Source: an uncultured Bacteroidales bacterium (GTDB lineage: Bacteria > Bacteroidota > Bacteroidia > Bacteroidales > P3). Taken from it: a DNA stretch of 64,000 nt. Below are positions 19,167 to 63,054 of this stretch, piece by piece. The notes beneath the pieces were generated by a model that did not search any database, was not told the DNA's origin, and was given only the letters and a program-made list of their open reading frames with translations. Every line of letters starts with the position of its first letter. Position 1 is the first letter of the stretch. Where the stretch lies: assembly GCA_900315335.1 (NCBI GenBank), contig OMYR01000027.1, positions 1 through 64,000 on the forward strand, read 5' to 3'. Made by a program: the position numbers and the translations under genes.

Positions 19167-19254
19167 CAAAATTAGTGTTAAATATCAATAAATTTTCTTT
19201 AAACACTAATTTATTTTTATCAATGATTATTTTTTTGATTCGACTTAATAATTT
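19167..19254. repeat. 21-bp-phased array 3' of the sugar transporter gene
   Basis: Degenerate 21-bp units (aaattagtgttaaatatcaat, then units with tttaaacactaat and caatgattat) fill the gap between the transporter stop and the aminotransferase start. The first unit also contains CAAAATTA (19167-19174), which on the minus strand is a -7 box for the aminotransferase gene. Same core as the other arrays, but more decayed. Confidence 0.5.
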
Positions 19255-19266
19255 TTCCTCTTCATT

Positions 19267-20667
19267 TTATGGTCTTATTTTACCTATCTTATATCCCTTC
19301 AAGCCATAGAAACATAAATAGATATATGAAATCATTGGTATGATAAATGAATATTTAATTCCTATTGCATCAGCCAAAAGTCCCTGCAATGGAGGTAAAA
19401 TTGCACCCCCAACAATCATCATAATGAGTATTGACGATGCAGACGCCGTTTGGCTTCCCAATCCATCAATTGCCAACGTAAAGACATTGCCCCACATTAT
19501 GGAATTAAACAATCCTATTGCCAAAATACACCAAACTGCAATTGTCGGAGCGACAATAAAAGACGATATTATCAAACCTAAATTTACCAAAGCAAATATA
19601 CCTAAACTCAAAGCAGGCTTACCTTCGCCAAGATAGAAAAATACAAAGTTAAGAATGATGAATATAATAAAGAACCAAACTTGATGAAATACAAGTCCGT
19701 TAAGAGAATAATTTACCAAGAAAATTATAGCGAATGAAGCAATTGCGAGCAAAACCATATAGATAAATTTATTCGTTTTCTTCGCATTTGACAACGATAC
19801 TGCCCCAAGAAATCTGCCTATCATCGCTCCACCCCAGTAATAACTAAGAAATGCAGAGGCAAGAGATTCCGGTTTATTCAAAATCTCTTTCATATACGAC
19901 ACAAAATTGCTGCCTATACTTACTTCCGCCCCAACATAAAAGAAAATTCCTAATGCTCCCAAAAGCACATAAGGTTTCTTAAATATGCTTTCCTTTTTAG
20001 ATACCACATCTTCTTTTTCTTCTGTGTAAGAAATTTTTGAAGTATAGATAAACACCGTCAAAGCCAATAGCAATGCAGCAAGGAACATATAAGGCAAAAA
20101 TACCGCCTGCGTTCCTGTGGTTTGTTTTGCAAAATAATTGAAAACAAAATATCCGCCAAGGGCAGGTCCCAATGTTGTTCCCAATGAATTAAACGCCTGA
20201 GTAAGATTAAGTCTTGAAGATGCAGTTTCTCTATCTCCTATTATGGAAACAAACGGATTTGCCGCAATCTGTAAAAACGTAAGACCTATTCCCAATAAAA
20301 ACAAAGTCATCAAAAACACTGAAAAAGGTAAATTCGCTTTGGCTGTCATAGCGAATAAGAAACAAGCAATGGCTGCTATTATCAAACCTATGACCAATGT
20401 GTTTTTATATCCAATCTTTGTTATCGGGTCTTTGCCTTTACGAGCGAACAAGTAGAATACAAACGCTCCGACAAAATATGCCCCAAAGAATGCAAATTGG
20501 ACTATATTCGCTTGAAAATGCGTTAATGAATAAACGCCTTTAAGATACGGTATCAAAACATCATTTAACGATGTTATAAAACCCCACATAAAAAACAAGA
20601 CCGTTACACTTATCATCGGCATAAGTGAAGACGTCTTCGTTTCCAATTCTGAATTATTATTTTTCAT
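19267..20667 (-). CDS. Sugar:proton symporter, FucP/GlcP-type MFS transporter
   Basis: 466 residues with about 12 membrane helices. The opening LFFMWGFITSLNDVLIPYLK and the mid-protein stretch LQIAANPFVSIIGDRETASSR are hallmarks of the FucP/GluP family that imports fucose, glucose or galactose. Start ATG at 20667 is 12 bases after the M16 peptidase stop on the same strand, so it is the last gene of the addA-addB-M16 run. A link between these genes is not obvious; the sugar specificity cannot be set from sequence. Confidence 0.88.
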   Translation of the reverse strand: MKNNNSELETKTSSLMPMISVTVLFFMWGFITSLNDVLIPYLKGVYSLTHFQANIVQFAFFGAYFVGAFVFYLFARKGKDPITKIGYKNTLVIGLIIAAIACFLFAMTAKANLPFSVFLMTLFLLGIGLTFLQIAANPFVSIIGDRETASSRLNLTQAFNSLGTTLGPALGGYFVFNYFAKQTTGTQAVFLPYMFLAALLLALTVFIYTSKISYTEEKEDVVSKKESIFKKPYVLLGALGIFFYVGAEVSIGSNFVSYMKEILNKPESLASAFLSYYWGGAMIGRFLGAVSLSNAKKTNKFIYMVLLAIASFAIIFLVNYSLNGLVFHQVWFFIIFIILNFVFFYLGEGKPALSLGIFALVNLGLIISSFIVAPTIAVWCILAIGLFNSIMWGNVFTLAIDGLGSQTASASSILIMMIVGGAILPPLQGLLADAIGIKYSFIIPMISYIYLCFYGLKGYKIGKIRP

Positions 20668-20679
20668 CTTTGATATTGT

Positions 20680-21915
20680 TTATTTCTTTATTGTATAATA
20701 TAATGTGTTATGTTTATTCTCAAAAAACATTTCTGTTGCCAATTCAATCAAACCATTGATTGTTACTTTTTCATAATATTCCTGTTCAATATTTATTCTT
20801 TCAAGCATATCCAAATGTGCATAATATGCAAGATTGAGTGCCTTGTCGGCAATTTTTATATTATTAAACGTTGTGTTTGCGTAATTCTTGTTTTTAACTT
20901 TTTGAAATTCTCTCTCGGTCGGTGGATTATCAACAAGGTTTCTTAATTCCTGCCAAATCATATCTTCTCCAAGTTTAATATCTACATCATCCGCATATTT
21001 GCCGATAATCATAAACAAACCCTTGTCATCATCACCTGAAATAACAGCATCTATACCCGTAAATATTTGTTTATTTCTTACCAAAGCATCATACAAACGC
21101 GAGCTCTTACCATTAGACAAAATATCGGAAAGTAAATCACAAGCGTAATAATCGTCATTTATTCTTTCGCACATAGGAAAAGTTATTACTATTACATTGG
21201 CAGGCACATCTCTTTCGACCGTCAATTCTCGATTTTCAGTTTGCAATGGCTCTTGTTTATAGTTTATAGTTTTTGTTCCACGATTGCCAAAATTAAAAAT
21301 ACTTGCCGCCAAATCGAAAACTTCTTCTGCTTTCACATTACCAGATATTGCAAAAACAGCATTGGACGGATTGTAATAATTGGCATAAAATTCTCTTACG
21401 ATTGATAGATTCGCTTTTTCTATATGGGAAATATCTTTTCCTATCGTTTGCCACTTGTATGGGTGCGTGGTATAAGACAATTCTCGCATCAGTTTATGCA
21501 AATCTCCGTAAGGCTGATTCAAATTGCGTTGCTTAAATTCTTCGCAAACGACCTTCTTTTGAACAGCCAAATGTTCCTCATCAATAATAAGGTTACACAT
21601 TCTATCGGCTTCAATCCTCAAAATAGTTTCCAAATAAATACTTGGAACGGTGCAATAGAAGTTAGTAATATCGCAATTAGTGAATGCATTGCTCTCCCCT
21701 CCTATGGAATTTATAAGATTATCGAAATCGGGAAAATTCTTACTACCCGAAAACATAAGATGTTCAAACAAATGAGCAAAACCTGTGTGATTCTCATCTT
21801 CGTTTTTACTTCCTACTTTGTATAATAAATTAACGGTTACAAGTTCTGTCATCAAATCTTCATTAACAATGACTTGCAAACCATTATCAAATATTTTCTC
21901 TTTATATTGTATCAT
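20680..21915 (-). CDS. M16 family zinc metallopeptidase
   Basis: 411 residues. The inverted zinc motif HLFEH is at 48-52, with the third ligand region CEEFKQR near 124-130, about 74 residues on, as in pitrilysin/MPP-type enzymes. It is a one-unit member (two M16 domains, the second inactive). No signal peptide is seen, so it is probably cytoplasmic or exported by an unknown route. It starts on the last base of the AddB-like stop codon, implying translational coupling. Confidence 0.9.
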   Translation of the reverse strand: MIQYKEKIFDNGLQVIVNEDLMTELVTVNLLYKVGSKNEDENHTGFAHLFEHLMFSGSKNFPDFDNLINSIGGESNAFTNCDITNFYCTVPSIYLETILRIEADRMCNLIIDEEHLAVQKKVVCEEFKQRNLNQPYGDLHKLMRELSYTTHPYKWQTIGKDISHIEKANLSIVREFYANYYNPSNAVFAISGNVKAEEVFDLAASIFNFGNRGTKTINYKQEPLQTENRELTVERDVPANVIVITFPMCERINDDYYACDLLSDILSNGKSSRLYDALVRNKQIFTGIDAVISGDDDKGLFMIIGKYADDVDIKLGEDMIWQELRNLVDNPPTEREFQKVKNKNYANTTFNNIKIADKALNLAYYAHLDMLERINIEQEYYEKVTINGLIELATEMFFENKHNTLYYTIKK

Positions 21916-24653
21916 TATCGTCTTGTTTTTTTACCCATTCGACAGAGAACATAGTAGTCGCAATAACGACATTTATCCTCATTTATTATTGCTTCATACT
22001 TTTCGCCTTGCTGTTTGCTTAAAAAATCGCCAAGCATTGTCTTCAAACTTTTCTCAAACGCCTCATTAGTATTTTTATCATAATAAAAAACGTTTTTATT
22101 TCTACTGCGAGACTCCGACATCGTTATATCCCTATCATCTAAATCGGACAAATATAACAATTCGGGCTTAATCACATCTGCTTCACCATTATTATAAGCC
22201 AAATAACAATAAAATAAAATCTCAAATATATTCTCAAAACCGTTTTTCCTTGATTTTTGTCCTTCATTCGGGCATTGCATCAATTGTTCAAAGGTATTGA
22301 AATTTCTTTCTTTTGCAGCACCAGTTTTATAATCTACAATACGAACAACATTTCCATAATTGCTATCCTCTACCCTATCAATCCTATCCAAACGTCCGAA
22401 CAAATGAACGGTATATCCGCCAACGTTCAAATCTCTTTTATATTCTTTTTCGCCACCAATATATTCGACATTGTTTTCAAAGTCTTTCCGATAGACCTGC
22501 TTCATATATTTTTTTATCATATTCAAATGAATGGCATCTGAGCAAACACGCCTATCTTGCTCCGTAGCATCGGAATTTATATATTTATCAATAGCATTTT
22601 CTATATACGGCATAGCATTTTCAACGCCGATATTCTTTCCTTTAATATCCTCATAAAACAAGTTAATGCTGTTATGAAAAACGTTTCCGAATGCAATAGC
22701 CAAATAATCATCGTCGTCAATTGTTTCGCTCAAGTATCTTACATTTTTCAAATAAAACTTCTGCTGACAATGTATAAGATTATTTAGCGATGAAGGGCTT
22801 AAACTTCTCTCACCTTTATCCAAAAATTTCAATTCATTGATATCAAAGAAATATTCTCTGTTTTCAGGTCGCAATGCTTTAACTGCCGTAAGACTTTTAT
22901 AATTTATCTGCTTTTTTTCTCCAATCGCAGGAAACTCAATCTCTATTTGACGCAAAAATCTACTTTTTTCCTTTAATTTGTTCTCCCCACCTATTGTTGT
23001 ATATATATAATCTGCTCTTTTGGCATGTTGCAGCAAACGATAGAAATAATATGCGAAAACGCCGCTCTTTCTTTCCACGCTGCCCATATCATACGCTTTA
23101 CGAAACGAATAAGGGATAAAAGAGACCTCTCTTGATAATTTCGGCAGATTGTCATCATCTGTCGAAAGCATCAACACATTCTCAAAATCCAAACTACGCG
23201 TTTCCAACATACCCATTAACTGCACTCCGTCTATTCCGTCCGAAATTATATCCAAACTAAACGCAGACAATTCTTTCTTTAATACGCTTTTAATTATATC
23301 ACCACCGATTTTTACATCCTTAATCTTGTCAAGCATATCGATAAAAGCCAATAGCATCTCGCTTATTTTCTTTAATATCGCTACTTGCCAAAGACCGTCC
23401 TTTTTGCTATCCGTAAAAGAATCAACAATATGTTTTATAGTATCAAATACTTTCTGTTTACTAAACTCTCCTTTATCCACCAAAGCATATAAATCTGCAA
23501 GCAACTCGTTATACAACCAAGTTTGATTGAATGGATAACCCATCGTTATATTTATTTTGCCTTTGTACTCTACCGGTAAGGATTTTATGACTAATGGAAT
23601 CAGTGATTCGTCGTTTAACACTATTGCCGTAGTGTTTAACACTGATTCGCTCGTTACCACTTCCTTTAACCACATACCAATATACGCCAAAGAAGTTGTT
23701 TCGTATGGCGAAGAAATAATATTGATTTGTTGTTTTTTGTTTGTAATATTATCAAAGGATACATCTTTCAAATCATTGCTTTGTGGAAACAAAACTATGT
23801 TCTCTCGAATAAATATTCCCGCTTCGTTTTTGTCGTTTGTCGCATAGTAATTGTCGTAATCCCAATAGAAGTCTGTCGTGTATTGTTCTTTTAACAGTCT
23901 GAATATTTTCTTTTCAACCTTATTCAAAACCGAAAAACCGATGATTTTCACCTTTTCGCAACTCAATGTAATCTCTCCTTGTTCCAATCGTCTCGCAAAC
24001 TCTCTATACATCTTGCCTGAATACGCCAAATTATGCTCGTCCAACAATTCATTAAACTGCTGATATATTTCGTACAAGTTGTTCCATACTTTTACAAAGT
24101 TCTTTCGCATCGAAGACTCGTCATTATCGATATTGCTATTGAACAATCGGTTTATCAATTCTATTTGCTGGCTGTTCAAATACTCTTTCGGGTCGATTTC
24201 CAAGTCTTTATAATCTTGCAAATTCCTAAACAACGCTTCTGCATTGACCAATTCTTTATCTATTTGGTCAAAATCTTTGAGTATAACCGAACCCCAAAAA
24301 TAAAAGTCATCGAAACTCTCTATCGTATAGTCATCTTGTGCTTGAAAATTCTTTCTAAAAACATCGCAATACACTGTATAAAGCAAATACAACAATTCCA
24401 AATTATCGCCTTTTCTCATATCAACCAAATAATCTCCCACCATTTGATCAATAGAAAATATCTTTGGAACGAAAAATACCGAATTGTCTTTATCGTTTGG
24501 TGTAACCGAGTTTTTGGCATTGTCTTTCAAATACTCAAAAAAGAAACGTATGGCGCGTTGATTGGGAAACAAAACCATAACATTTTGTAAATTATCTTTT
24601 TCTTTCTCAAAAATCTTTTGAGCCACAGTATGTAAAAAACCGCTACCTTTCAT
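21915..24653 (-). CDS. AddB-like PD-(D/E)XK exonuclease subunit
   Basis: 912 residues. The N-terminal half is a decayed helicase fold (FPNQRAIRFFFEYL near 30). The C-terminal nuclease has GRLDRID near 755 and VDYKTG near 770. Four cysteines for an Fe-S cluster are visible: one near 627 (IHCQQKFY) and three at the end (CRYCDYYVLC). This is the AddB/RexB plan. With the helicase-nuclease gene directly upstream (19 bases) it should form the complex that resects DNA double-strand breaks for RecA. Confidence 0.85.
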   Translation of the reverse strand: MKGSGFLHTVAQKIFEKEKDNLQNVMVLFPNQRAIRFFFEYLKDNAKNSVTPNDKDNSVFFVPKIFSIDQMVGDYLVDMRKGDNLELLYLLYTVYCDVFRKNFQAQDDYTIESFDDFYFWGSVILKDFDQIDKELVNAEALFRNLQDYKDLEIDPKEYLNSQQIELINRLFNSNIDNDESSMRKNFVKVWNNLYEIYQQFNELLDEHNLAYSGKMYREFARRLEQGEITLSCEKVKIIGFSVLNKVEKKIFRLLKEQYTTDFYWDYDNYYATNDKNEAGIFIRENIVLFPQSNDLKDVSFDNITNKKQQINIISSPYETTSLAYIGMWLKEVVTSESVLNTTAIVLNDESLIPLVIKSLPVEYKGKINITMGYPFNQTWLYNELLADLYALVDKGEFSKQKVFDTIKHIVDSFTDSKKDGLWQVAILKKISEMLLAFIDMLDKIKDVKIGGDIIKSVLKKELSAFSLDIISDGIDGVQLMGMLETRSLDFENVLMLSTDDDNLPKLSREVSFIPYSFRKAYDMGSVERKSGVFAYYFYRLLQHAKRADYIYTTIGGENKLKEKSRFLRQIEIEFPAIGEKKQINYKSLTAVKALRPENREYFFDINELKFLDKGERSLSPSSLNNLIHCQQKFYLKNVRYLSETIDDDDYLAIAFGNVFHNSINLFYEDIKGKNIGVENAMPYIENAIDKYINSDATEQDRRVCSDAIHLNMIKKYMKQVYRKDFENNVEYIGGEKEYKRDLNVGGYTVHLFGRLDRIDRVEDSNYGNVVRIVDYKTGAAKERNFNTFEQLMQCPNEGQKSRKNGFENIFEILFYCYLAYNNGEADVIKPELLYLSDLDDRDITMSESRSRNKNVFYYDKNTNEAFEKSLKTMLGDFLSKQQGEKYEAIINEDKCRYCDYYVLCRMGKKTRR

Positions 24654-24672
24654 CTTAACACTCCTAACACCT

Positions 24673-27672
24673 TTAACATTTTTCTATTTCGACACCCACA
24701 CCTTGTTCAATATTTATATAAAACAAATATCCCGATATTTCTTTGTCTTCAAAGCCACGAACATTGCCAAGTAAATTCATATAATGATGAACTTGCTTTT
24801 TGTATTTATCTTGTTTTTTACCAAATTTATAATCAACAACTATAATATTTTTATCATTGTACATAATACGGTCTGGACGCTTAACCACCAATTCATTCGC
24901 TTCGTCAAAACTTATTATCGCCCTTTCGTTCAAGACGCTATACGTATCATCAAACCAATGTCTTTCGCTCGTTGTTTCTATTATCTTATCAATGATTTCT
25001 TCCAACAAAACCGTATCGTCTTTCGATTGCTCCGCTTTTAACAATATGTTTTGTTTGTCTTCTGCTTTAATAAGATTGGAAATATATGTGTGATACTTCG
25101 TACCTATTTCCTTTTGAGAAAGTTCTTGATACGAATTATTAAAATATTCTTCCAGTTCGTCTTTATTGGATTTGGCGAAATTCACAACATTATCCGAAAA
25201 TTCTATCTTATCTATCAATATCTCGTCATTCTTTCCCTCATCGGATTTTGAAGAAGATTTCAATGTATCTTCACAATTCTTATAAATATATAGGTTATCC
25301 TCTCTTGCAACAAATTTACTGTTTTCCGAATTATTTACATAGTTAAACAACAATGTATTCAACGACTTCGCATCTTCACTCTTCGCTTTTTCCGACGGCA
25401 TTGTGGATATAACCGAAAGATTATCCCTGCTACGTGTAAAAGCAACGTACATCAAATTGATTGTATCCATATACTGAGCGTGATTTTCCTTTTCAAACTC
25501 ATCGTTATATTTCGTATCTTCCAAACTTGAAGACATTGCCGAAAAGATTGGCAACGCATCATCTTCGCAAGATTTAACCCAAATATTACTTGATTTATAA
25601 AAACTACTATCACAATAAGGAACAATAACAACCTTATATGCCAAACCTTTTGATTTATGAATACTTGTCAGATGTACGCCTGCCTTAACTCCACTCATAT
25701 CAACGTTTCGCTCTTGCAACGCTTCGTCCCAATAATCCAAAAAATCCGTTAAATTTCCTCCCGTATTCTTGGTATAATCTTTAATATTATCATAAAAAGC
25801 AGGCAAGAAAACCGCATCATCATTAATATCCAACACAACAGCAATATTCATAACCAACTCCAATAAGGATTTATCGGTCTTGTAACTGCTCGACAAAGCA
25901 TTGATACGTTTTATATTCTCATCACTACTATTTATAATCTCCTTAGATATTACACGCTTTTTGTCATCGATATATTTCAAGGTTTCTATAATCTTGCTAA
26001 CCGCCAAAGATGATGAGAACTTAAAGGCTACATCACTTACAGGATTGTAATCAAAATCCTCTGCATCTTTCAATGACTTCGCCACACTGACCAAATCGAC
26101 ATTACTGCGGAACAATATTGCTATATCATTCAAATCATAACCTTTATCATTGTAGTATTTAATCTCTCTTGTGATATAATCTATAACCGCATCCCTATTT
26201 TCTGCAAACTGAACTCTAACTATACCTTTGTTTTCTTCTCTTCTGACTTTCTGGTCTTGAAAATCTATCCCTTTTTCCTTATATATATTTCCAAAAAGAT
26301 TATTATTAAATTCAACGACATTACCCAACGAACGGAAATTGTCTTGCAACTCAATCACATTCTTGCTATCGCTTTGCTTTATCTTATCAACCTCGCCCTG
26401 CATAATAGTGTAATCGCCGCCATTGAATCTATATATACTCTGCTTTATATCTCCGAATATATACGATTTACCTCCGCTGCTCACACACTCATTCATTAGT
26501 TTTTCCAAGTTACGAAACGAAGCACGATTGGTATCTTGAAATTCGTCTATAAAGATATTATCAACCCTTTGCGATATTTTCTCAAACACAAACGGGACAT
26601 CGCCCTCATTCAATTTATCCAAGAAAGACGCCGTATCATTCAACACAAATATATTGTCTTGCTTCAAAATATCACTCTTTATATCAGAAATATATTTCAG
26701 CACACCCAACGGATAAATATTGGCATAATAAATCTTGTTCAGCCTATACGCATCATAATTCTTTTCTATATATTCGATTATATCGTTGGTTTCATTATAA
26801 ACTTCCTCACATGTATGACGGTTTTTTATTTCTTCTATCTCTATTTTTTGAGGCAATTGCTTGATATATTTATATACTCCGCCCTTTCGACCTTCCTTGA
26901 AATCCGCTTCTTTAAGCCCGAAACTCTCGCAACTCTTCAAAAACTTTTCTCTTTTGAGTCTCAAAATCTTTTCAAACTCAACAATGCTTTTTACCAACGA
27001 CTTTCTCAATTTATCCAACTGCTCTAAGGAAAAATCCTCCGCATTATTCTGCAAAATAGTGCTGACATCGTCCGAGCCAAACGCATTTTTCACAAAAGCA
27101 TTCAACGTTTTCTCTATGTTCCACGTCTTATGGTCCTCGTGAATTTTATCAAAATAATTCGCCAACCACTCAAAGATTTTGTTTCCTTGCTCATCATCTT
27201 CTTTTAGGGAAGTTACCAATGTTTTAACGGCTAATTCGTCATATTTTTGAGCATTTAACGAAAGCATATAATTACCAACCACACCCAATTCCTTAGTTAA
27301 ATTTTTAAGCACCAACTGAAAAAACGAATCAATTGTAGAGATATTAAAAAACGAGTAGTTATGCAAAATTCTCGTCAGCAGTTCTTGTGATTTCTGTTGC
27401 AAGAGCGCATCGGAGATATTAATCGAATGCTTAGCAAATTGAGTTTTCAAGTTATTGATGTATCCAACAGTTTCGGAATCCTTTTTCCCTTGCGAGATAT
27501 TTCGCAATACGTCGATAATTCGGTCTTTCATTTCTTTGGCAGCAGCGTTTGTGAAAGTTACAGCCAATATATTTTCAAAACCGCTAACCACTGCCGTAAA
27601 AATATAGTTACTTGCAAGATTAAAAGTTTTACCGCTTCCTGCCGACGCATTATATATCTTGAAACCTGCCAT
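24673..27672 (-). CDS. AddA-like UvrD helicase-nuclease
   Basis: 999 residues. Walker A SAGSGKT at 10-16, Walker B IDEFQDTNRASF near 375, and later superfamily 1 motifs VHLTSIHKSKGLAY and NLMYVAFTRSRDNL. The C-terminal PD-(D/E)XK nuclease has RPDRIMY near 935 and VVDYKFGKK near 945. This is the helicase and 3'-strand nuclease partner of AddB. First gene of the operon, with a promoter box just upstream (27698-27705). Confidence 0.9.
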   Translation of the reverse strand: MAGFKIYNASAGSGKTFNLASNYIFTAVVSGFENILAVTFTNAAAKEMKDRIIDVLRNISQGKKDSETVGYINNLKTQFAKHSINISDALLQQKSQELLTRILHNYSFFNISTIDSFFQLVLKNLTKELGVVGNYMLSLNAQKYDELAVKTLVTSLKEDDEQGNKIFEWLANYFDKIHEDHKTWNIEKTLNAFVKNAFGSDDVSTILQNNAEDFSLEQLDKLRKSLVKSIVEFEKILRLKREKFLKSCESFGLKEADFKEGRKGGVYKYIKQLPQKIEIEEIKNRHTCEEVYNETNDIIEYIEKNYDAYRLNKIYYANIYPLGVLKYISDIKSDILKQDNIFVLNDTASFLDKLNEGDVPFVFEKISQRVDNIFIDEFQDTNRASFRNLEKLMNECVSSGGKSYIFGDIKQSIYRFNGGDYTIMQGEVDKIKQSDSKNVIELQDNFRSLGNVVEFNNNLFGNIYKEKGIDFQDQKVRREENKGIVRVQFAENRDAVIDYITREIKYYNDKGYDLNDIAILFRSNVDLVSVAKSLKDAEDFDYNPVSDVAFKFSSSLAVSKIIETLKYIDDKKRVISKEIINSSDENIKRINALSSSYKTDKSLLELVMNIAVVLDINDDAVFLPAFYDNIKDYTKNTGGNLTDFLDYWDEALQERNVDMSGVKAGVHLTSIHKSKGLAYKVVIVPYCDSSFYKSSNIWVKSCEDDALPIFSAMSSSLEDTKYNDEFEKENHAQYMDTINLMYVAFTRSRDNLSVISTMPSEKAKSEDAKSLNTLLFNYVNNSENSKFVAREDNLYIYKNCEDTLKSSSKSDEGKNDEILIDKIEFSDNVVNFAKSNKDELEEYFNNSYQELSQKEIGTKYHTYISNLIKAEDKQNILLKAEQSKDDTVLLEEIIDKIIETTSERHWFDDTYSVLNERAIISFDEANELVVKRPDRIMYNDKNIIVVDYKFGKKQDKYKKQVHHYMNLLGNVRGFEDKEISGYLFYINIEQGVGVEIEKC

Positions 27673-56795: not shown

Positions 56796-56836
56796 TTCTT
56801 TATATTTTTTATTCTTTTACTAATTTAGATATTGGC

Positions 56837-58189
56837 TTACAAACCTTGCTCACGCATCAATTCCAAACCGCTGCGAACTATCGCTTGAACATCAGTCTTG
56901 GAAACATCTATAACCTCGCATAAAGCAAAATCTTCCGCATCAACTTCATAAATTCCTAACTCTTCCATACGATCAATGTCTTTCGTAAGACAAGCCTTTA
57001 CAAGCTGCATAGGATAAATGTCCAAAGGCACAACTTTCTCAAAATCGCCTGTAAAGATATATGCCCTTTGTCCTCCGTGAATATTGGAATCGATATGAAC
57101 AGGTTTCTTTGAGCAAAAAGCCGTAAAGCCTTTCAAGAATGTTTTCGAGATACTGAATTTCTTAAATCCCGGCATCATCCAACCCAAACCTTCTTTGTAA
57201 TCGCCTTCCTCAATAACGGTTACCTGCGTATCGTAATAACCCAAATATCCGTCGCTTTCGACTCTTGTTCCCGTCAAAACATTACCGCTTATATAACGAA
57301 GATGCTTATCGCTCACATTACCCTCAAACATTTTTCTTAGGTTAATTCCCTTCGTTGTCTCAAAGTAACAAGGATTTTTCACTTCCTCGCCCGTCAAAGC
57401 AACTATCGTCTTAGCGTAATACTTGCCGTCCAAGAACAATCTGCCTATGGCTACCAAATCCATAACCGTCAAATACCAAATACGCATACCCTTATTTATC
57501 GGCTTTATTCTCTGCGCCTGAACAGACACATTGCCATAAGGATGCTTGCCCTCAAAAGTCAAAACCTCAACATTCTGCAAGCCTTTTATTTCTTCTCCCG
57601 TGTTCTTGTTGATTGAAAGATACAAAGGTTTTGAAGTCATCTTCTTCAAAGCGTCTATGCCGACTTGCATTGCAGCCTTCTGTCCTTTAACCAACAAATC
57701 ATAATCGGCAGCAAGAGGAGCGGAATCAAAGCCTTTTATAATGATATACTCTGGTGTTGCATCTGCATCGGGAATAATATCGTAAGGACGCTGACGAAGT
57801 AATGCCCAAGTACCCGATTCCCACATTTTTTCTCTAATCTGTTCGCCACTTAACTCTGCGATAGACTGTTTGCCGAAATCGACTGCACTATCCAAACCGT
57901 CTGCTGTTATACGTATTTCTTCTATCACACGTTTTGCCCCACGCTTAACCTCAACGATTTGACCGCTTACAGGAGAAACGAATTTTACTTTCGGATTTTG
58001 TTTAACGTAAAAGACAGGACTTCCGACCTGAACCTTATCGCCGACATCTACCAAAAGTTTAGGCGTAACACCTATAACGTCCAAAGGCTTCAAAGCAAAA
58101 GAAACATCGCTGAGCGATTTGATTTCTTTCTTGGCTTCTCCGAACAAATGGATGTCTAAACCCTTAGGTATTTTAATAACTTTTGACAT
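56837..58189 (-). CDS. nqrA: Na+-translocating NADH:quinone reductase subunit A
   Basis: 450 residues, no membrane helix. Opens with KIPKGLDIHLFGEAKKE, then VDVGDKVQVGSPVFYVKQNP and FVSPVSGQIVEVKRGAKRV, as in all NqrA. HIDSNIHGGQRAYIFTGDFEKV lies near 365. Cytoplasmic face; takes part in quinone binding. First gene of nqrABCDEF, with a -7 box 38 bases upstream. Confidence 0.96.
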   Translation of the reverse strand: MSKVIKIPKGLDIHLFGEAKKEIKSLSDVSFALKPLDVIGVTPKLLVDVGDKVQVGSPVFYVKQNPKVKFVSPVSGQIVEVKRGAKRVIEEIRITADGLDSAVDFGKQSIAELSGEQIREKMWESGTWALLRQRPYDIIPDADATPEYIIIKGFDSAPLAADYDLLVKGQKAAMQVGIDALKKMTSKPLYLSINKNTGEEIKGLQNVEVLTFEGKHPYGNVSVQAQRIKPINKGMRIWYLTVMDLVAIGRLFLDGKYYAKTIVALTGEEVKNPCYFETTKGINLRKMFEGNVSDKHLRYISGNVLTGTRVESDGYLGYYDTQVTVIEEGDYKEGLGWMMPGFKKFSISKTFLKGFTAFCSKKPVHIDSNIHGGQRAYIFTGDFEKVVPLDIYPMQLVKACLTKDIDRMEELGIYEVDAEDFALCEVIDVSKTDVQAIVRSGLELMREQGL

Positions 58190-58226
58190 AATGTATTTGT
58201 ATTTTATATTTTTTATAATGAGGTTG

Positions 58227-58234
58227 CAAAGTTA
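58227..58234 (-). promoter_or_regulatory. -7 box of the nqr operon
   Basis: Minus strand TAACTTTG matching TAnnTTTG, 37 bases before the nqrA ATG. Upstream, 58235-58490 is T- and C-rich with no gene seen. Confidence 0.5.
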
Positions 58235-58499
58235 CAAATCTTTTTTGAAAGATAGGGAATAACATCAAAAGATTTTACAAATTATCTTTCCTCTCAATAC
58301 CTCGCATATCCTTATCTCAAACTCTGAGTTTTCTTTCTGTTTTCTTTATGCAACACTCTCAGTCCCTCACATATCCTTACTCCGACCTCTGTTTCAAGTA
58401 TGCAAATCTTGAATTTTTAATTTATTCATCGCCATTTTACGCTCCACGCACTGATTTTTTAATTAAATCATTTGAAAAACGTACTTAATAATGGGAAAA

Positions 58500-58795
58500 A
58501 CATACTCCACGAAGGCGAAAACGTATTCCACGAAGCCTAACTTTTTTCCAAGTCAGTCCAATACTTTTCCAAGTCAGCCTGACTTGGAAAAAAGTACGGC
58601 TGTTTTGAACACCAATATCAGTGTTTTTGATGTAAAACTTCAAAGCAAAAAAAACAAACTTCAAGGCACAAGAAACGAACTTCAAAGCACAAGCGACAAA
58701 CTTCAAAGTAGAAAATCAAAATATCTAAATAAAGAATTAAAATATCAAAGTAAAGAATTAAAATATCAATAAAGAAAATTAAAATATCAAGTCTT
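58500..58795. repeat. 21-bp-phased array of about 14 units upstream of the thioredoxin gene
   Basis: Exact 21-base steps with changing cores: ccacgaag at 58507 and 58528; ccaagtcag at 58548 and 58569; acttcaaag/g at 58637, 58658, 58679 and 58700; ttaaaatatc at 58737, 58758 and 58779. The second ccaagtcag is followed by its own inverse (ccaagtcagcctgacttgg, 58569-58587). Because 21 is divisible by 3, a plus-strand frame 58491-58772 stays open and would encode heptapeptides (KTYSTKA, KLQSKKN and so on); this looks like a by-product. Confidence 0.85.
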
Positions 58796-58864
58796 TTAAT
58801 GTAAAATATCGGGAAAGAAGAATGAAAATAAAAAGAGAGTTTTCGTGCTTTGCAATGAAAAAGT

Positions 58865-58895
58865 TTTGCCATAAAACAATTATTTTATAACTTTG
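58865..58895 (+). promoter_or_regulatory. Promoter 240 bases upstream of the thioredoxin lipoprotein gene
   Basis: TTTG (58865-58868), 19 bases, TAACTTTG (58888-58895): full match to the Bacteroidetes -33 and -7 boxes. Predicts a transcript start near 58899 and a leader of about 235 bases. Confidence 0.65.
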
Positions 58896-58898
58896 CAC

Positions 58899-59134
58899 TC
58901 CGTTAGACCTTTGAACGGCTTTATTTAATAAAAACTCCTCTGTTTGGGAACAAAAAACAACACTATTATATATAAGGTGTAGGCAAAAACAAAGAAAACG
59001 GACGACATCATATATATAATAAAGGTATAAGGAGGAAAAGATGACACCTTTATATATATAATAGAGGCAAGGGAAAAGGAAAACGAGACGAAAAAAAAGA
59101 TTTTGTAACGAATAACAAATAAAATATAACGATA
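58899..59134 (+). other. Long leader with inverted AT-rich repeats
   Basis: Contains TATATATAA three times (58968, 59012, 59054; steps 44 and 42 bases), with ATAAGGTGT near 58974 and its near-inverse ACACCTTTAT near 59045, so a long stem can form. ctctgtttgggaacaaaaa near 58939 resembles the tTTGGAA units beside the 44-kb palindrome. Ends in AT-rich DNA before the ATG at 59135. No clear open frame. Confidence 0.5.
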
Positions 59135-59731
59135 ATGAAAAAAGTAGGTTTGATGTTGGCACTTGTTTTAAGCGTTGCTTCATTTACAAGTTGCTTCTCA
59201 CAGAATGAAAAAGCAAAATCCAATATCAATTGGATGGGTGTTCAAGACGCAATCAATCAGTCCCAAAAAGACGGCAAAGACGCAAAACTTTTCTTTATAG
59301 ACTGCTATACGTCGTGGTGCGGCTGGTGCAAAGTGTTAGACCAAAAAACTTTCTCCAACGATACCGTTGCCGCAATACTTAATTACTATTATTATCCTTG
59401 TAAGTTCGATGCCGAAAGTTCCGATGAAATAACTATCGGCAAAAGTATATACATGGGTAACGCAAAAGCAGGCAAACGCGGAGGAACTCACGAATTGATG
59501 AAAGTTATTTGGGAAGGGCAGAACGGCGGCGGTTATCCTTCGATGTCGATAAGACGAGGCGATTTCACGAATTTGGAGTGCGTTATGGGATATGTCGAAG
59601 CTCCGAAATTGGAAGTGATATTGGTTTATTACGCAGAGAAGTTCAATAAAGATATGTCTATCGAGAAATTTGCTTCACAGTACAACGATGTGTTCAGAAG
59701 CGATGTTTTGAAAAAAGTTTTTAAGAAATAA
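59135..59731 (+). CDS. Thioredoxin-fold lipoprotein
   Basis: 198 residues. Lipobox FTSC with Cys20 as the lipid anchor; thioredoxin motif WCGWC with Cys62 and Cys65; the cis-Pro region is GGGYPSMSI near 132. A DUF255/Thioredoxin_7-like single domain, probably a periplasmic disulfide or reductase protein bound to a membrane. Own promoter 240 bases upstream with a structured leader; not in an operon with the next gene, which starts 85 bases later. Confidence 0.85.
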   Translation: MKKVGLMLALVLSVASFTSCFSQNEKAKSNINWMGVQDAINQSQKDGKDAKLFFIDCYTSWCGWCKVLDQKTFSNDTVAAILNYYYYPCKFDAESSDEITIGKSIYMGNAKAGKRGGTHELMKVIWEGQNGGGYPSMSIRRGDFTNLECVMGYVEAPKLEVILVYYAEKFNKDMSIEKFASQYNDVFRSDVLKKVFKK

Positions 59732-59815
59732 TTAAAAAATATATCCCGATACGGCAACGGACAATAAGGTCAAGAAATTGAAAGTGGCGGATATCGGGTA
59801 AAAAAGTCTTTATAT

Positions 59816-61081
59816 ATGGATAATAGTGAATGTATCAAATGTTTGATGCAAAAGAATATAGTCGTTGCAGTGGGTTGTACCGAACCTGTTGCAGTGGCTC
59901 TTTGCGTTGCAAAAGCAAAGGAAATCTTGAACAAAGAAGTTGAAGAGATAGAATTAAAGTTATCGAAAAACATTATCAAGAACGCAATGGGCGTCGGTAT
60001 CCCTGCAACAGGTATGGTAGGCTTGCCGATAGCGATTGCTTTGGGTGTGGTGTGCGGAGATTCGTCCAAGGAATTGGAAGTTTTGGGAAACGCAAAAGAT
60101 AATGTGGAAAAGGCAAAGGATTGGTTGAAGACACATTCTATAAATATGTCGGCGGCACAGACAGATGAGAAACTTTATATAGAATGTATAGCGAAAAACA
60201 AAGATTCTTTTGCCAAAACGATAATTGCTCAAACGCATACCAATTTTATTCATATAGAAAGCAACGGAGAAGTTATCCTGCATAAAGATTTGCAATCCGA
60301 CAACAACTGCACGTCGGACGATATATTGGAAAAACTTAACGCCAAAATGATTTGGGACTACGCCACCGACGAACCGATAGAGAATTTGGAGTGGATAAAC
60401 GACACGGTGGCGTTGAACGGTAAGTGTAGCGAAGAGAGTTTGAAAGGCAACTACGGATTACAAATCGGCAAGAACTTATTTAATTCGTGGGATAAAAGCA
60501 TAAGGAGTGAGATTATAGGACGCAGTTGTGCGGCTTGCGATGCACGAATGGACGGCATAACGCTTCCTATCTATTCCAATAGCGGCAGCGGTAATCAAGG
60601 AATAACTTGTACTTTACCTGTGTATTATTTCGGCGTTAAAAAGAACTCTCCGAAAGAAGACATAACACGTGCTTTGACTTTGTCGCATCTTATGAGCATT
60701 TATATAAAGAGTAAAATCGGCCGTTTGTCGGCTTTGTGCGGAGTTGTGAATGCTTCAATGGGGGCTGCAAGCGGTATAACTTATTTGTCGGGCGGCACGT
60801 TCCAACAAATGTGTTATGCAATCAACAATATGATTAATACAATCACGGGAGTGGTCTGCGACGGAGCGAAACCGTCTTGTTCTTTAAAGATGTCGGCGTG
60901 TTTGAACAGTGCTTTTGACTCGGTTATGTTGGCGATGAAAGATATTGTGGTCGATTCAACTGACGGTATTGCCGAAAAGGATATAGACAGAAGCATTGAG
61001 GACGTAGGTCGCATCGGCAAGTACGCTATGGATTCTATGGACGATATGGTTTTGGATATTATGACGCACAAAAAACACTAA
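59816..61081 (+). CDS. UPF0597 family Fe-S lyase (CyuA / L-serine dehydratase alpha-like)
   Basis: 421 residues. GCTEPVAVALCVAKA near 20 (Cys21), RSCAACDARMDG near 237 (Cys238, Cys241), and KPSCSLKMSAC near 355 (Cys355, Cys362) provide the [4Fe-4S] ligands seen in this family. Members act as L-cysteine desulfidases (CyuA/YhaM, CdsB) or serine/threonine dehydratases, releasing ammonia, pyruvate and sulfide. Oxygen-sensitive, so it agrees with an anaerobic host. Substrate cannot be fixed here. Confidence 0.85.
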   Translation: MDNSECIKCLMQKNIVVAVGCTEPVAVALCVAKAKEILNKEVEEIELKLSKNIIKNAMGVGIPATGMVGLPIAIALGVVCGDSSKELEVLGNAKDNVEKAKDWLKTHSINMSAAQTDEKLYIECIAKNKDSFAKTIIAQTHTNFIHIESNGEVILHKDLQSDNNCTSDDILEKLNAKMIWDYATDEPIENLEWINDTVALNGKCSEESLKGNYGLQIGKNLFNSWDKSIRSEIIGRSCAACDARMDGITLPIYSNSGSGNQGITCTLPVYYFGVKKNSPKEDITRALTLSHLMSIYIKSKIGRLSALCGVVNASMGAASGITYLSGGTFQQMCYAINNMINTITGVVCDGAKPSCSLKMSACLNSAFDSVMLAMKDIVVDSTDGIAEKDIDRSIEDVGRIGKYAMDSMDDMVLDIMTHKKH

Positions 61082-61141
61082 CGAAATACGCAATAAAAAC
61101 AAAGCGATTAAGTTTTCATAAAACAAATATCACTTAAAACG

Positions 61142-61206
61142 AAAATAGTGTTTAACACTACGAAAATAATCTCACTAACTAATCTACTGAATAGTGAGAT
61201 TATTTT
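61142..61206. repeat. 21-bp-phased array forming a two-way terminator
   Basis: Three units at 61142, 61163 and 61184. Units 2 and 3 contain a perfect 15-bp inverted repeat AAAATAATCTCACTA (61163-61177) / TAGTGAGATTATTTT (61192-61206) followed by T. Lies between the CyuA-like gene and the convergent tmRNA, so it should stop transcription from the left. Confidence 0.8.
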
Positions 61207-61326
61207 TATGAATAGAGACAAGGGAATAAAGAATGGTGATAAGCTAATTGCGAATAATTATAAACAAGCGATAAATGGCTGTAATAAAATTGAAAATAAC
61301 GAAAAACACTTATAAAACGGCAACAA

Positions 61327-61361
61327 AAAAATAGAGACCTCATAATGATGTCTCTATTTTT
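61327..61361 (-). terminator. Terminator of tmRNA
   Basis: Perfect 12-bp stem AAAAATAGAGAC/GTCTCTATTTTT with an 11-base loop. On the minus strand the T run follows directly; 5 bases beyond the tmRNA end. Confidence 0.9.
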
Positions 61362-61366
61362 ACCTG

Positions 61367-61766
61367 TGGAGTTGCAGAGATTCGAACTCTGGTCCAAACA
61401 AGAGAAACCGAAGTTTTCTACACGCTTATTCTATTGTTCAATTGTCGGCGCAAGGCAGTGAATAGACACGCTTTCCTTTTGCTTAGCCTCTAAAAATTTC
61501 ATCGGACACACGAGGCATTTGTCTGACTAAACCTTTCTGATGATGCACCCCTTGATTGAGAAAACCGAAGGTTAGGAATCTTCTCAGGAGCGTCTTGCTC
61601 AGCAACCTTGTGCCGATAAAGAGTAGTGTACTATACTTCGACTACGCAGCAAGAGCGTAATTATTTTCGCCAATTAATTTTTCGTAACCAAGTTTTAAGT
61701 TAATTGTTACCTGTAACTGCGTGCTTGCTTGAGCCTCTACCTTGCTGTCAAAACCAACCCAACCCC
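61367..61766 (-). ncRNA. ssrA: Transfer-messenger RNA (tmRNA)
   Basis: 400 bases. Ends fold as a tRNA-Ala-like acceptor: GGGGTTG pairs with CAACTCC (one G-U), with a T arm containing CAGAGTTCGAATCTCTG. The internal frame (minus strand of 61642-61671) encodes GENNYALAA then TAG, the Bacteroidetes degradation tag. Rescues stalled ribosomes with SmpB. Own promoter and terminator. Confidence 0.96.
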
Positions 61767-61793
61767 AAAGTATTACTCTTACAATTCAGGTTG

Positions 61794-61824
61794 CAAAATT
61801 ATAACAAAACTACGGATTGACAAA
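61794..61824 (-). promoter_or_regulatory. Promoter of tmRNA
   Basis: Minus strand TTTG (61824-61821), 19 bases, TAATTTTG (61801-61794), 27 bases before the RNA 5' end. Between here and 62011 only AT-rich DNA is seen. Confidence 0.72.
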
Positions 61825-62011
61825 ATATTTCGCTCTTTTTCTCACTATTCCGTACAAATTAATCACAACAAAACGTCAATTTTTACGTTTTTCAAGCCGA
61901 TTTATCACCATTTTCTCTGTTTTAATATGTATAATCGCTAAAATTAATTCAACGATAAATCAACTACTTAACGAAAATAATGTATTTTTTTCATATTTTT
62001 TACTCAAAAAA

Positions 62012-62043
62012 TTTGGTCACAATTCAAAAAGATAGTAATTTTG
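62012..62043 (+). promoter_or_regulatory. Promoter of tRNA-Asp
   Basis: TTTG (62012-62015), 20 bases, TAATTTTG (62036-62043), about 50 bases before the tRNA. Good match to both boxes. Confidence 0.7.
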
Positions 62044-62092
62044 CAAACGCAACTGAGGGATACGACAAAATGAATCTTGAAGTAAGCGAAAC

Positions 62093-62167
62093 GGTCTGGT
62101 AGTTCAGCTTGGTTAGAATACATGCCTGTCACGCATGGGGTCGCGAGTTCGAGTCTCGTCCAGACCG
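62093..62167 (+). tRNA. tRNA-Asp (GTC)
   Basis: 75 bases. Acceptor GGTCTGG pairs with CCAGACC; anticodon arm CATGCCTGTCACGCATG gives anticodon GTC; T arm has GAGTTCGAGTCTC. CCA not encoded. Flanked by its own promoter and terminator. Confidence 0.96.
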
Positions 62168-62170
62168 CTG

Positions 62171-62203
62171 AAAAAGAGATGTTGAAATTAGCATCTCTTT
62201 TTT
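62171..62203 (+). terminator. Terminator of tRNA-Asp
   Basis: Stem AAAAAGAGATG/CATCTCTTTTT with a 10-base loop, run of T after it. 3 bases beyond the tRNA. Confidence 0.9.
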
Positions 62204-62329
62204 TGTTGTTAGAACTTTACATAATATATCTTTAATAACAATCTTTATTACTACGACTCCAACACAAATAAACAGCAATACAAATCCAAAAATCCTTCTG
62301 ACAATAAGGAAATTTTACAAAATAAAATA

Positions 62330-62357
62330 AGCGAGAGATTTTGTAAAAACTCTCGCT
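62330..62357 (-). terminator. Terminator of gmk
   Basis: Stem AGCGAGAG/CTCTCGCT (62330-62337, 62350-62357); minus strand continues TATTTT. 27 bases after the gmk stop. Confidence 0.85.
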
Positions 62358-62384
62358 ATTCCACTTATTATCGTTTCGCTTACC

Positions 62385-62942
62385 CTATAATATATATTTC
62401 TCCACCGCTTTTGAAAATTCCTTAACAGCAGTAGCCAAATCGTCATTGACAATTATTTTATCAAAAAATTTTGCATAACTTATCTCCATTTCAGCCCTTT
62501 GAATACGCTTATTCAACGTCTCTTCTGTCTCCGTTCCTCTATTAACCAAACGATGCTTTAACACTTCAACACTCGGCGGCATTATAAAAATACTATACGC
62601 CTTATCTCCCAAAGTCTTTTTTATATTCACTCCACCTTTAACATCGACATCAAAAACAGGATATCTCCCCTCGCCGTTTATTCTATCTATCTCACTTTTC
62701 AAAGTACCATAAAAAAGATTATCATAGACCTGTTCATACTCCAAAAAATCCGATGCCTCTATCCTTTTATTAAATTCCTCCGCCGAAAGGAAATAATAAT
62801 CTTTGCCATTGACTTCTCCCTGTCTTGGGGTTCGCGTAGTCGCCGAAACCGAAAAACCAAATTTGTCGGGATATAGTTCAAAAATCTTCTTCAATATGGT
62901 GGTCTTACCACTGCCACTCGGTGCTGAAACAATCAAATTCAT
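62385..62942 (-). CDS. gmk: Guanylate kinase
   Basis: 185 residues. P-loop PSGSGKTT (8-15), SVSATTRTPRQGEVNGKDYYF near 33-53 (GMP binding), EYEQVYDNLFYGTL near 70, and VDVKGGVNIKK near 98. Converts GMP to GDP with ATP. Starts right at the P-loop region, slightly short at the N-terminus compared with E. coli but normal for Bacteroidetes. Confidence 0.95.
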   Translation of the reverse strand: MNLIVSAPSGSGKTTILKKIFELYPDKFGFSVSATTRTPRQGEVNGKDYYFLSAEEFNKRIEASDFLEYEQVYDNLFYGTLKSEIDRINGEGRYPVFDVDVKGGVNIKKTLGDKAYSIFIMPPSVEVLKHRLVNRGTETEETLNKRIQRAEMEISYAKFFDKIIVNDDLATAVKEFSKAVEKYIL

Positions 62943-62970
62943 AGTCTAATAATTTTTAAGTGTTATTGTC

Positions 62971-63054
62971 AAATTAGTGTTTAACATCAGCAAAATAATA
63001 TTAAACATTAATAGAATAGTGTTTAACATCAGTACAACGATATTTAATACAAAT
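62971..63054. repeat. 21-bp-phased array between gmk and the coiled-coil gene
   Basis: Units at 62971 (aaattagtgtttaacatcag..), 62992 (aaaataatattaaacatta..), 63013 (agaatagtgtttaacatcag..) and 63034 (decayed). Units 1 and 3 agree at most positions. 3' of the coiled-coil gene on the minus strand. Confidence 0.78.

What the first reader, a model, noticed from the sequence alone, without database searches (positions are those of the whole stretch)
19167..63054. A family of 21-bp-phased degenerate arrays in chromosomal non-coding DNA
At least nine places carry consecutive units of exactly 21 bases: 19167, 27810, 38138, 39628, 41145 (coding), 52092, 58500, 61142 and 62971; the flanks of the 44.2-kb palindrome step by 21 too. 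Six share a core like TTAGTGTTAAACATTAGTA in either orientation. Most lie just 3' of a gene or operon (sugar transporter, gldN, lptB, rodA, mrdA, nqrF, the CyuA-like gene, the 295-residue gene). 21 bases is two turns of DNA, so every unit shows the same face. Inverted neighbours make hairpins, so a role in termination, protein binding or supercoiling is plausible. None is seen in the prophage. I know no named family with these features.
Basis: partly seen in the sequence, partly recalled or inferred. Interest (0 to 1): 0.75.

Follow-up and report, generated by a model that had tools for sequence, protein, structure and literature searches.

The report
Genome-wide 21-base lattice in bacteria
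Short DNA repeats spaced 21 letters apart in this gut-type bacterium turn out to be the visible patches of a hidden 21-letter rhythm that runs through its genes as well and keeps step over thousands of letters, which suggests that a protein may coat the chromosome at regular two-turn intervals.

Summary
The 21-bp arrays are real (573 pattern matches genome-wide against 18 in the reversed control) and share one degenerate, near-palindromic unit. Neighbouring units lie 21 or 42 bp apart in 228 of 231 close pairs, inverted ones included. They are not local tandem duplicates; tests of 3'-end placement and RNA pairing gave no clear support. Between two sister species, array cores change by substitution as fast as other intergenic DNA, but their only indels are net gains or losses of exactly 21 bp (weak outer units are not so protected).

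The arrays are the unconstrained patches of a lattice that continues through genes. Coding DNA has autocorrelation peaks at 21, 42 ... 420 bp, mostly at third codon positions; shuffling synonymous codons removes about three quarters of the mean excess. Successive arrays up to ~4.5 kb apart stay in register on a non-integer pitch of ~21.02 bp. The prophage lacks it. The sister species and most sampled close relatives have it, with other intergenic words; sampled other families and E. coli show nothing comparable.

Best explanation: a two-fold-symmetric DNA-binding protein occupies the chromosome every two helical turns. No protein was identified. The known ~10-11 bp genomic periodicity is the nearest relative, but differs.

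The parts
17200..64000 (.). host chromosome part of the window that carries the 21-bp lattice in coding and non-coding DNA
   Evidence: comb test z 12.1 (lags 18-230) and best z 5.0 (230-1000) against z 1.4 at that pitch in 1-16700; held-out window scores above all 40 codon-block-permuted profiles
19170..19232 (.). array: one strong and two weak units, 21 bp apart
   Evidence: unit profile 23.7, 7.3, 5.7 bits
23627..23647 (.). single unit inside a 912-aa ORF
   Evidence: 16.9 bits
27789..27872 (.). array: one weak and three strong units
   Evidence: 7.0, 27.8, 18.2, 17.8 bits at 21-bp steps
   Evidence: 12.5 and 24.4 bits, 21 apart
35862..35882 (.). single unit near the 3' end of a 321-aa ORF
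   Evidence: 14.4 bits
38137..38212 (.).
   Evidence: lag-21 segment score 27; Pfam
39607..39690 (.). array: two strong and two weak units, 3' of the rodA-type gene
   Evidence: 28.8, 20.8, 5.7, 7.6 bits; FTSW_RODA_SPOVE
41144..41197 (-).
   Evidence: lag-21 segment score 23 in ORF 41119..43032
44139..44337 (.). long palindrome with 21-bp-stepped arms; an interspersed element with several similar places in the sister genome
52074..52157 (.). array: three strong and one weaker unit
   Evidence: 11.0, 20.9, 23.0, 20.1 bits
58466..58790 (.). 21-bp arrays with other words
   Evidence: lag-21 segment scores 31 and 77
61143..61184 (.). array: one strong and one weak unit
   Evidence: 18.5 and 5.7 bits
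62972..63055 (.). array: three strong and one weak unit
   Evidence: 25.1, 22.6, 22.3, 7.5 bits

Best explanation
The chromosome carries a sequence lattice with a pitch of about 21.02 bp, two turns of B-DNA. SHOWN: it runs through genes and gaps, stays in register over several kilobases, is written mainly at synonymous positions inside genes and as explicit near-palindromic units (core TGTnnnACA) in gaps, and is not a decaying relic (favoured third bases are substituted less often than disfavoured ones; array cores accept substitutions and 21-bp steps but no other indel was seen). INFERRED: the lattice is the footprint of an abundant DNA-binding protein, probably a dimer because the unit and the coding profile are dyad-symmetric, that sits on one face of the DNA once per two turns and forms a long regular nucleoprotein filament. 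Intergenic arrays would be the high-affinity anchors that set the register; selection then keeps the anchors of neighbouring gaps in step so that filaments can join across a gene. Function would be packaging of the nucleoid, possibly with silencing or protection of host DNA.
For: Rigid spacing: 206 of 231 neighbour spacings are 21 and 22 are 42. Array cores aligned with the sister species: 3117 bases, 200 substitutions (6.4%; other intergenic 6.0%), 3 merged indel events, all net +-21, no other, against 11.2 expected (Fisher p 4e-5); 18.6 raw events expected after allowing for homopolymer runs, 5 pieces seen, by my reading all parts of net-21 events. T6, T8 and A14 of the unit changed once each in 139-140 sites while other positions reach about 10%. 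Coding DNA of 592 ORFs: peaks at every multiple of 21 to 420 (z 9.7 to 3.0), none at 10, 11, 31, 32. Synonymous codon shuffling in 571 genes lowers the mean excess at multiples of 21 from 0.0068 to 0.0015-0.0016 (lag 21 alone: 0.0098 to 0.0037-0.0038). Inside coding DNA the unit-profile score is highest at multiples of 21 from the arrays: -33.1 against -35.1 to -35.8 at the other phases of the same codon step (84-420 bp), and -34.6 against -36.1 to -36.5 (420-900 bp). Register of successive arrays: within 3 bp of the lattice in 14/16 (<2 kb), 18/21 (2-3 kb) and 25/28 (3-4.5 kb) intervals at P 21.02, where about 30% is chance; 90 intervals alone give P 21.021 (mean cosine 0.80; best of 300 nulls, on a coarser grid, 0.31), close to 21.011-21.015 from whole-sequence autocorrelation. 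Favoured third bases substituted in 477/5971 sites against 448/3840 for disfavoured, ratio 0.68, the lowest of 21 phase shifts. Coding profile dyad-symmetric, r 0.73-0.86. Not detected in the prophage.
Against: No protein was identified: no histone-fold match in any of 14 genus genomes, and HU-family counts (2-23 in the genus) do not track the lattice. Register is lost beyond about 6.5 kb (6/18 within 3 bp), and the nine clusters of this window do not fit one fixed lattice (p 0.66). Between the sister species 15 of 30 inter-array distances have slipped by 1 bp and 6 by 3 or more modulo 21, so the register is elastic. Indel protection holds for strict cores only: with weak outer units included there are 11 indel pieces in 3827 bases, five of them of 1-2 bp (2.9 per kb against 6.9 in other intergenic DNA; a sixth 1-bp piece is part of a net-21 event), and the 42 bp on either side show 9.1% substitutions and 17 non-21 events in 5415 bases, like other intergenic DNA. 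Cores were defined in one species, which hides indels of that lineage that break a unit; for the other lineage alone about half of 11.2 would be expected. The lattice could come from mutation bias at bound positions rather than selection. One genus genome with 30 kb sampled (G004) shows no lattice. The codon-block control passes in 12 of 20 lattice-clade sets only.
Confidence: 0.5

Rival explanations
1. Mutational footprint: a regularly bound protein (or other regular DNA state) modulates mutation or repair every 21 bp, and the sequence pattern is a by-product without function.
For: The lattice is strongest where selection is weakest (third codon positions, gaps) and acquired DNA (the prophage) lacks it. 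Favoured and disfavoured bases differ in substitution rate.
Against: Near-invariant bases in the units (T6, T8, A14 at about 1/140 against 6% in other intergenic DNA) and the absence of non-21 indels in strict array cores ask for more than a mutation bias.
Confidence: 0.2
2. Structural code: a stronger and sharper version of the known ~10-11 bp genomic periodicity (DNA curvature, supercoiling) with a dominant two-turn term and no dedicated protein.
For: The pitch (P/2 about 10.5-10.6 in most species with a clear signal) is a plausible helical repeat; known periodicity is also chromosome-wide, reported under selection and generally absent from phages (PMC7537859 abstract and section 14; PMC3431218 passages).
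Against: No signal at 10, 11, 31, 32 bp; specific words and dyads; register of arrays over 4.5 kb. In a 50-kb E. coli stretch the same test gives 11.1 bp, z 3.7, at short range and nothing near 11 bp beyond 230 bp.
Confidence: 0.15
3. Mobile or dispersed repeats: the arrays are a MITE- or REP-like family spread by transposition and recombination; the lattice in genes is unrelated.
For: Hundreds of copies, sequence family limited to this genome and its sister among 61 searched, synteny breaks at arrays (14 of 61 breakpoints within 100 bp of a core array, some counted twice).
Against: Y1/RAYT transposase in 0 of 14 genus genomes; no sharp element ends; units of one array hardly more alike than random units (0.655 against 0.630); coding lattice is in phase with the arrays.
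Confidence: 0.08
4. Transcript 3'-end elements: the arrays form hairpins that end or protect transcripts.
For: In co-directional gaps arrays lie a median of 61 bp from the upstream stop and 95 bp from the next start; 87 of 145 units there point with transcription.
Against: Present in 12 of 57 divergent gaps; no pairing covariation within units at 7 of 8 position pairs and none clear between units; lattice continues in coding DNA.
Confidence: 0.04

Closest known systems
Genome-wide ~10-11 bp dinucleotide / A-tract periodicity of prokaryotic chromosomes (Atzinger and Lawrence 2020, PMC7537859; Abel and Mrazek 2012, PMC3431218)
   Same: Chromosome-wide, conserved among close relatives, reported under selection, generally absent in phages
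   Different: Here the period is two turns (about 21.02 bp), without a 10.5-bp term at odd half-steps, with explicit near-palindromic words in gaps, in register to about 4.5 kb, and with indels of strict array cores limited to whole units. The part of PMC7537859 that I read (section 14) explored periods of 6-16 bp in E. coli
BrickBuilt minisatellite/MITE of Porphyromonas gingivalis (PMC4596501, abstract and outline seen)
   Same: Bacteroidales, intergenic, short tandem unit close to two turns (23 nt)
   Different: 19 places in strain ATCC 33277, an element with leader, tail and small inverted-repeat ends, always intergenic; here hundreds of degenerate arrays without sharp ends, in phase with genes
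REP/BIME elements with RAYT transposases (PMC2817692, PMC3733652: search listings with the start of the abstract; details recalled)
   Same: Dispersed intergenic palindromes in both orientations, lineage-specific sequence
   Different: No Y1 transposase found in the genus; strict 21-bp lattice; continues in genes
Nucleosome or archaeal-histone sequence periodicity (recalled)
   Same: Sequence adapted to a regularly spaced protein
   Different: No histone-fold gene found; pitch of 21 bp, not about 10 bp

Membership tests
~10-11 bp genomic periodicity | dominant period 10-11 bp, so peaks at 10/11, 31/32 bp | tested here: not met
   coding residuals at 10, 11, 31, 32, 52, 53, 73, 74, 94, 95 between -1.6 and +0.7 sd while multiples of 21 reach 9.7 (21) to 3.0 (420) sd
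~10-11 bp genomic periodicity | present across coding and non-coding chromosome, absent in prophage | tested here: met
REP/RAYT | associated Y1 (REP-associated tyrosine) transposase | tested here: not met
   PF01797 in 0 of 14 genus genomes, 26 of 61 overall
MITE / BrickBuilt | element with defined terminal inverted repeats | tested here: not met
   37 aligned three-unit arrays: about 22 bits in each core unit, 8.3 and 6.6 in the next 21 bp on either side, 2.4-4.2 beyond; the outer units look roughly mirror-like but show no sharp end
Minisatellite by tandem duplication | neighbouring units clearly more alike than units of other arrays | tested here: not met
   0.655 (n=328 pairs) against 0.630
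Intrinsic terminator | located 3' of genes with conserved RNA pairing | tested here: not met
   RNA ends not testable here
Known RNA family | Rfam match at gathering score | tested here: not met
   only one tmRNA and three tRNAs in the window
Histone-based chromatin | histone-fold protein | tested here: not met
   PF00808 in 0 of 14 genus genomes, 1 of 61 overall
HU/IHF-based chromatin | HU-family protein that distinguishes lattice-bearing genomes | tested here: inconclusive
   60 of 61 genomes have PF00216; counts 2-23 in the genus with no clear link
Nucleoprotein filament | protein bound every 21 bp in vivo | not testable with these tools
   needs footprinting or ChIP

The most novel reading that the evidence does not exclude
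A bacterial chromatin code: a clade of gut Bacteroidales packages its chromosome in a sequence-encoded nucleoprotein lattice with one protein dimer per 21.02 bp, with intergenic anchor arrays kept in register across genes by selection, and with synonymous codons used to extend the lattice through genes.
Probability: 0.45. Interest if true: 0.97.

Novelty: categorically new. Interest (0 to 1): 0.9.

Why it matters
My eight literature searches found no bacterial genome described with a site lattice in kilobase register. If the lattice is a protein footprint, this clade has a form of chromatin whose positions can be read from sequence, it biases codon choice and indels in many genes, and it sets host DNA apart from acquired DNA. 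It makes an old question (does sequence direct nucleoid packing in bacteria?) testable by one footprinting experiment. Even under the mutational reading it would show where a regular structure sits on the DNA in vivo.

Tried and rejected
Tandem duplication as the source of the arrays: rejected, since neighbour units are hardly more alike than random ones. REP/RAYT, MITE, terminator, Rfam and histone readings: see the membership table. Site-specific recombination at arrays: two breakpoints looked at (L113/L203 and L112/L118) fit recombination across stretches of 28 and 29 identical bases (counted by eye); ordinary. Coding heptads (coiled coils) as the cause of the coding signal: the top 100 of 675 genes hold 65% of the lag-21 excess but 69% of genes are positive; in the more distant sets (MrdA loci 48-100, other families of the order) the excess is 0.003-0.004 at lag 21 and about zero at 42 and 63, unlike here; synonymous shuffling removes about three quarters of the mean excess. 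What is left may be heptads. EM without array phases converged on a 21-bp pattern from four starts, but no null was run and its orientation is confounded with strand composition; I do not lean on it. The first cross-species profile test gave inflated z values, also in other families (19.1), because control periods were not multiples of 3; replaced by codon-block permutation. The first comb test had an edge error at short lags; replaced. A 22-bp lattice in genus g2: non-coding peaks at 22, 44, 66 in one 20-kb stretch but no whole-sequence comb; G014's signal consists of harmonics of 69 bp. Flexible YR steps at some phases are not used because they can reflect codon phase; part of the phase-by-base signal in coding DNA is codon composition too (chi-square 535, 757, 940 at three distances against 442, 338, 271 for a control period of 24.013).

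Results against that I kept: window clusters do not share one fixed register; 12 of 31 prophage windows and 58 of 87 host windows passed a null threshold that does not allow for the 3-base period, while the codon-block control gives z -1.5 in the prophage; codon-block control passes in 12 of 20 lattice-clade sets only, most at a pitch chosen from or near the fits, whereas the outside sets were run at 21.05 (prophage 21.013); the profile was learnt on the same genome that it scores.
Full report
WHERE IT IS. The window is G000:C31:1-64000 of a 2.13-Mb, 66-contig genome. The nearest named record by MrdA is the MAG 'Bacteroidales bacterium Phil12' (L021, 100% on MrdA); its 197,226-bp contig has the length of G002:C149, so G002 is that MAG or a twin. 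The next hits are MAGs named as Bacteroidales, many from ruminant gut. G002 is a sister species; the long alignments are mostly 94-96% identical. I took positions 1-16,700 as the prophage (the finding gives no coordinates): of 10 ORFs tested there, 7 match PHROGs, among them head, sheath, tape-measure and baseplate families.

THE OBSERVATION. The arrays exist and belong to one genome-wide family: 290+283 matches to TTAGTGTTAAACATNANTA at up to 3 mismatches against 8+10 in the reversed control. At up to 2 mismatches the pattern has 286 matches in G000, 288 in G002 and 0-11 in each of the other 59 of 61 genomes searched. An iterated profile gave 211 units in 461 kb, with 4 hits in the reversed sequence, and 404 units in 837 kb. 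Spacings up to 150 bp: 206 of 231 are 21, 22 are 42, one each 22, 84, 134; 51 of the 21s and 42s are between inverted neighbours. Clusters, weak units included, hold mostly three or four units (70 and 42 of 174). Three-unit arrays have weaker, partly conserved outer units on both sides.

WHAT THE UNIT IS. The consensus AATTAGTGTTAAACATTAGTA is near-palindromic about its eleventh base. Complementary positions vary independently at seven of eight position pairs (for 5/15 the non-pairing A-C occurs 28 times, about 32 expected by my arithmetic), so no hairpin is being conserved within units; the exception, 9/11, I attribute to two unit types. Pairing between neighbours is slightly below chance (z -2.6) and between second neighbours slightly above (z 1.9). 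Units of one array are hardly more alike (0.655) than random units (0.630), so arrays are not fresh tandem duplications.

SELECTION ON SPACING. Of 96 core arrays, 49 lie fully and 3 partly in G000-G002 alignments. Cores: 3117 aligned bases, 200 substitutions (6.4%), three merged indel events, each net +21 or -21. Other intergenic DNA: 31,926 bases, 6.0% substitutions, 135 merged events, 115 of them not a multiple of 21. No such event was seen in cores where 11.2 were expected (Fisher p 4e-5). Allowing for homopolymer length, 18.6 raw events were expected and 5 pieces seen, by my reading all parts of net-21 events. Limits: cores were defined in G000, which hides unit-breaking indels of that lineage, so the fair expectation may be half. 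With weak outer units included, 11 pieces fall in 3827 bases; five of them, of 1-2 bp, belong to no net-21 event (2.9 pieces per kb against 6.9 in other intergenic DNA). The 42 bp on either side of arrays show 9.1% substitutions and 17 non-21 events in 5415 bases, no better than other intergenic DNA. Within units, T6, T8 and A14 changed once each in 139-140 sites; G7, T16, A17, G18, T19 changed in 10-11.5%. Over all alignments, indels of exactly 21 bp stand out: 6 of 54 merged coding events and 8 of 159 non-coding ones, several far from any profile-defined array.

THE LATTICE RUNS THROUGH GENES. After masking arrays, non-coding lag 21 still stands out (z 7.5). Coding DNA of 592 ORFs has peaks at all multiples of 21 from 21 (z 9.7) to 420 (z 3.0), with nothing at 10, 11, 31, 32; the third codon position carries most of it (0.2948 at lag 21 against 0.2753 and 0.2798 at 18 and 24). 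The excess is spread over genes: 69% of 675 are positive, though the top 100 hold 65%. Shuffling synonymous codons within 571 genes lowers the mean excess at multiples of 21 from 0.0068 to 0.0015-0.0016, and at lag 21 alone from 0.0098 to 0.0037-0.0038. Array and gene lattices are one: inside coding DNA the unit-profile score at multiples of 21 from the arrays is -33.1 against -35.1 to -35.8 at the other phases of the same codon step (84-420 bp), and -34.6 against -36.1 to -36.5 (420-900 bp); folding at 19, 20, 22 or 23 shows nothing.

REGISTER OVER KILOBASES. Distances between successive arrays, modulo 21, cluster and drift by about 1 bp per kb (108 intervals). With P 21.02, 14/16, 18/21, 25/28, 15/25 and 6/18 intervals lie within 3 bp of the lattice at <2, 2-3, 3-4.5, 4.5-6.5 and >6.5 kb; about 30% is chance. 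The 90 intervals under 6.5 kb alone give P 21.021 with mean cosine 0.80 (300 nulls on a coarser grid: mean 0.19, largest 0.31). Whole-sequence autocorrelation gives 21.011-21.015, with z 24.2, 16-20 and 9.2-9.5 at lags 18-230, 230-1000 and 1000-3000; G002 gives 20.990-21.011. Between the species, 30 orthologous inter-array distances differ by 0 (7), +-1 (15), +-2 (2) or more (6) modulo 21, including two of +-20, that is one unit and one base. The register is therefore elastic, kept within a few bp, and lost beyond about 6.5 kb. In this window the best phase drifts fairly smoothly from about 34 to 44 kb, but the nine clusters do not share one fixed lattice (p 0.66).

NOT A RELIC. At 23,996 aligned third positions within 600 bp of arrays, bases favoured by the lattice phase were substituted in 477 of 5971 sites and disfavoured ones in 448 of 3840 (ratio 0.68, the lowest of 21 phase shifts; shifts 1, 8 and 14 also reach 0.70-0.76; the profile was learnt on the same genome). 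A decaying relic should show no difference. This fits selection or mutation bias.

WHO HAS IT. Per-genome comb tests (mostly 15-40 kb each) are clear (z 4.1 to 21.4 for lags 18-800; control periods up to 2.9) in G001, G006-G010, G012, G013 of the genus, in 10 of 14 MrdA-neighbour loci tested among L022-L045 (the other four 3.2-3.7), and in genera g12, g4 and, weakly, g3 (4.4). They are not clear (3.8 or less) in G004 and in the stretches tested of genera g2, g5, g6 and g8-g11; G014 of g2 has a strong signal at other periods, from a 69-bp repeat. G003 and G005 had only 7-8 kb and G011 was not tested. The best pitch of clear cases varies from about 20.9 to 21.26. Intergenic words differ by species, but the coding profile learnt in G000 beats all 40 codon-block-permuted profiles in 12 of 20 lattice-clade sets and in 0 of 9 outside sets, prophage and E. 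coli included. Stretches of other families of the order show z 3.0 at short range and nothing at that pitch beyond. A 50-kb E. coli stretch shows only the known 11-bp signal at short range.

HOW IT PROBABLY WORKS. The profile in genes is dyad-symmetric on the given strand (r 0.73-0.86 about phases 9.5 and 20), as is the intergenic unit. A dyad-symmetric, non-integer two-turn pitch that ignores gene borders points to a protein lattice on double-stranded DNA rather than to RNA, translation or transposition. I take the most likely mechanism to be cooperative binding of a dimer every two turns along the chromosome, with arrays as anchors. This last step is inference. Histone-fold genes were not found; HU-family numbers give no lead.

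LITERATURE. Eight searches of the open library found no description of such a lattice. Nearest are the ~10-11 bp periodicity papers (PMC7537859: abstract, outline and section 14; PMC3431218: passages; PMC3940949 and others: listing only) and BrickBuilt (PMC4596501: abstract and outline; PMC5771137: passages). Subscription papers are mostly not covered.

Noticed in passing
window 44139-44337: Long palindrome with 21-bp-stepped arms; the sister genome has similar stretches at several other places (G002 contigs C151, C141, C152, C53), so it looks like an interspersed element of its own.
   Followed up: partly
L113:9061-9123 and 14694-14756; L112:14009; L118:11628: Synteny between G000 and G002 breaks at arrays (14 of 61 breakpoints within 100 bp of a core array, some counted twice); two cases fit recombination over 28 and 29 identical bases, counted by eye.
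   Followed up: partly
L243 (genus g2 of the same family): Non-coding autocorrelation peaks at 22, 44 and 66 bp, as if another pitch existed there; one 20-kb stretch only.
   Followed up: partly
L232: Periods 34.5, 23.0, 17.25, 11.5 are harmonics of a 69-bp repeat, probably a repetitive gene.
   Followed up: no
window 58466-58790: Two further 21-bp arrays with quite different words in one region.
   Followed up: no
window 4995-6947: Local 21-bp signal inside a prophage ORF that matches tape-measure families; perhaps heptad repeats of a coiled coil.
   Followed up: partly
G002, G014, G025, G035: 22-29 HU-family matches per genome, against 0-5 in 47 of the 61 genomes searched.
   Followed up: no
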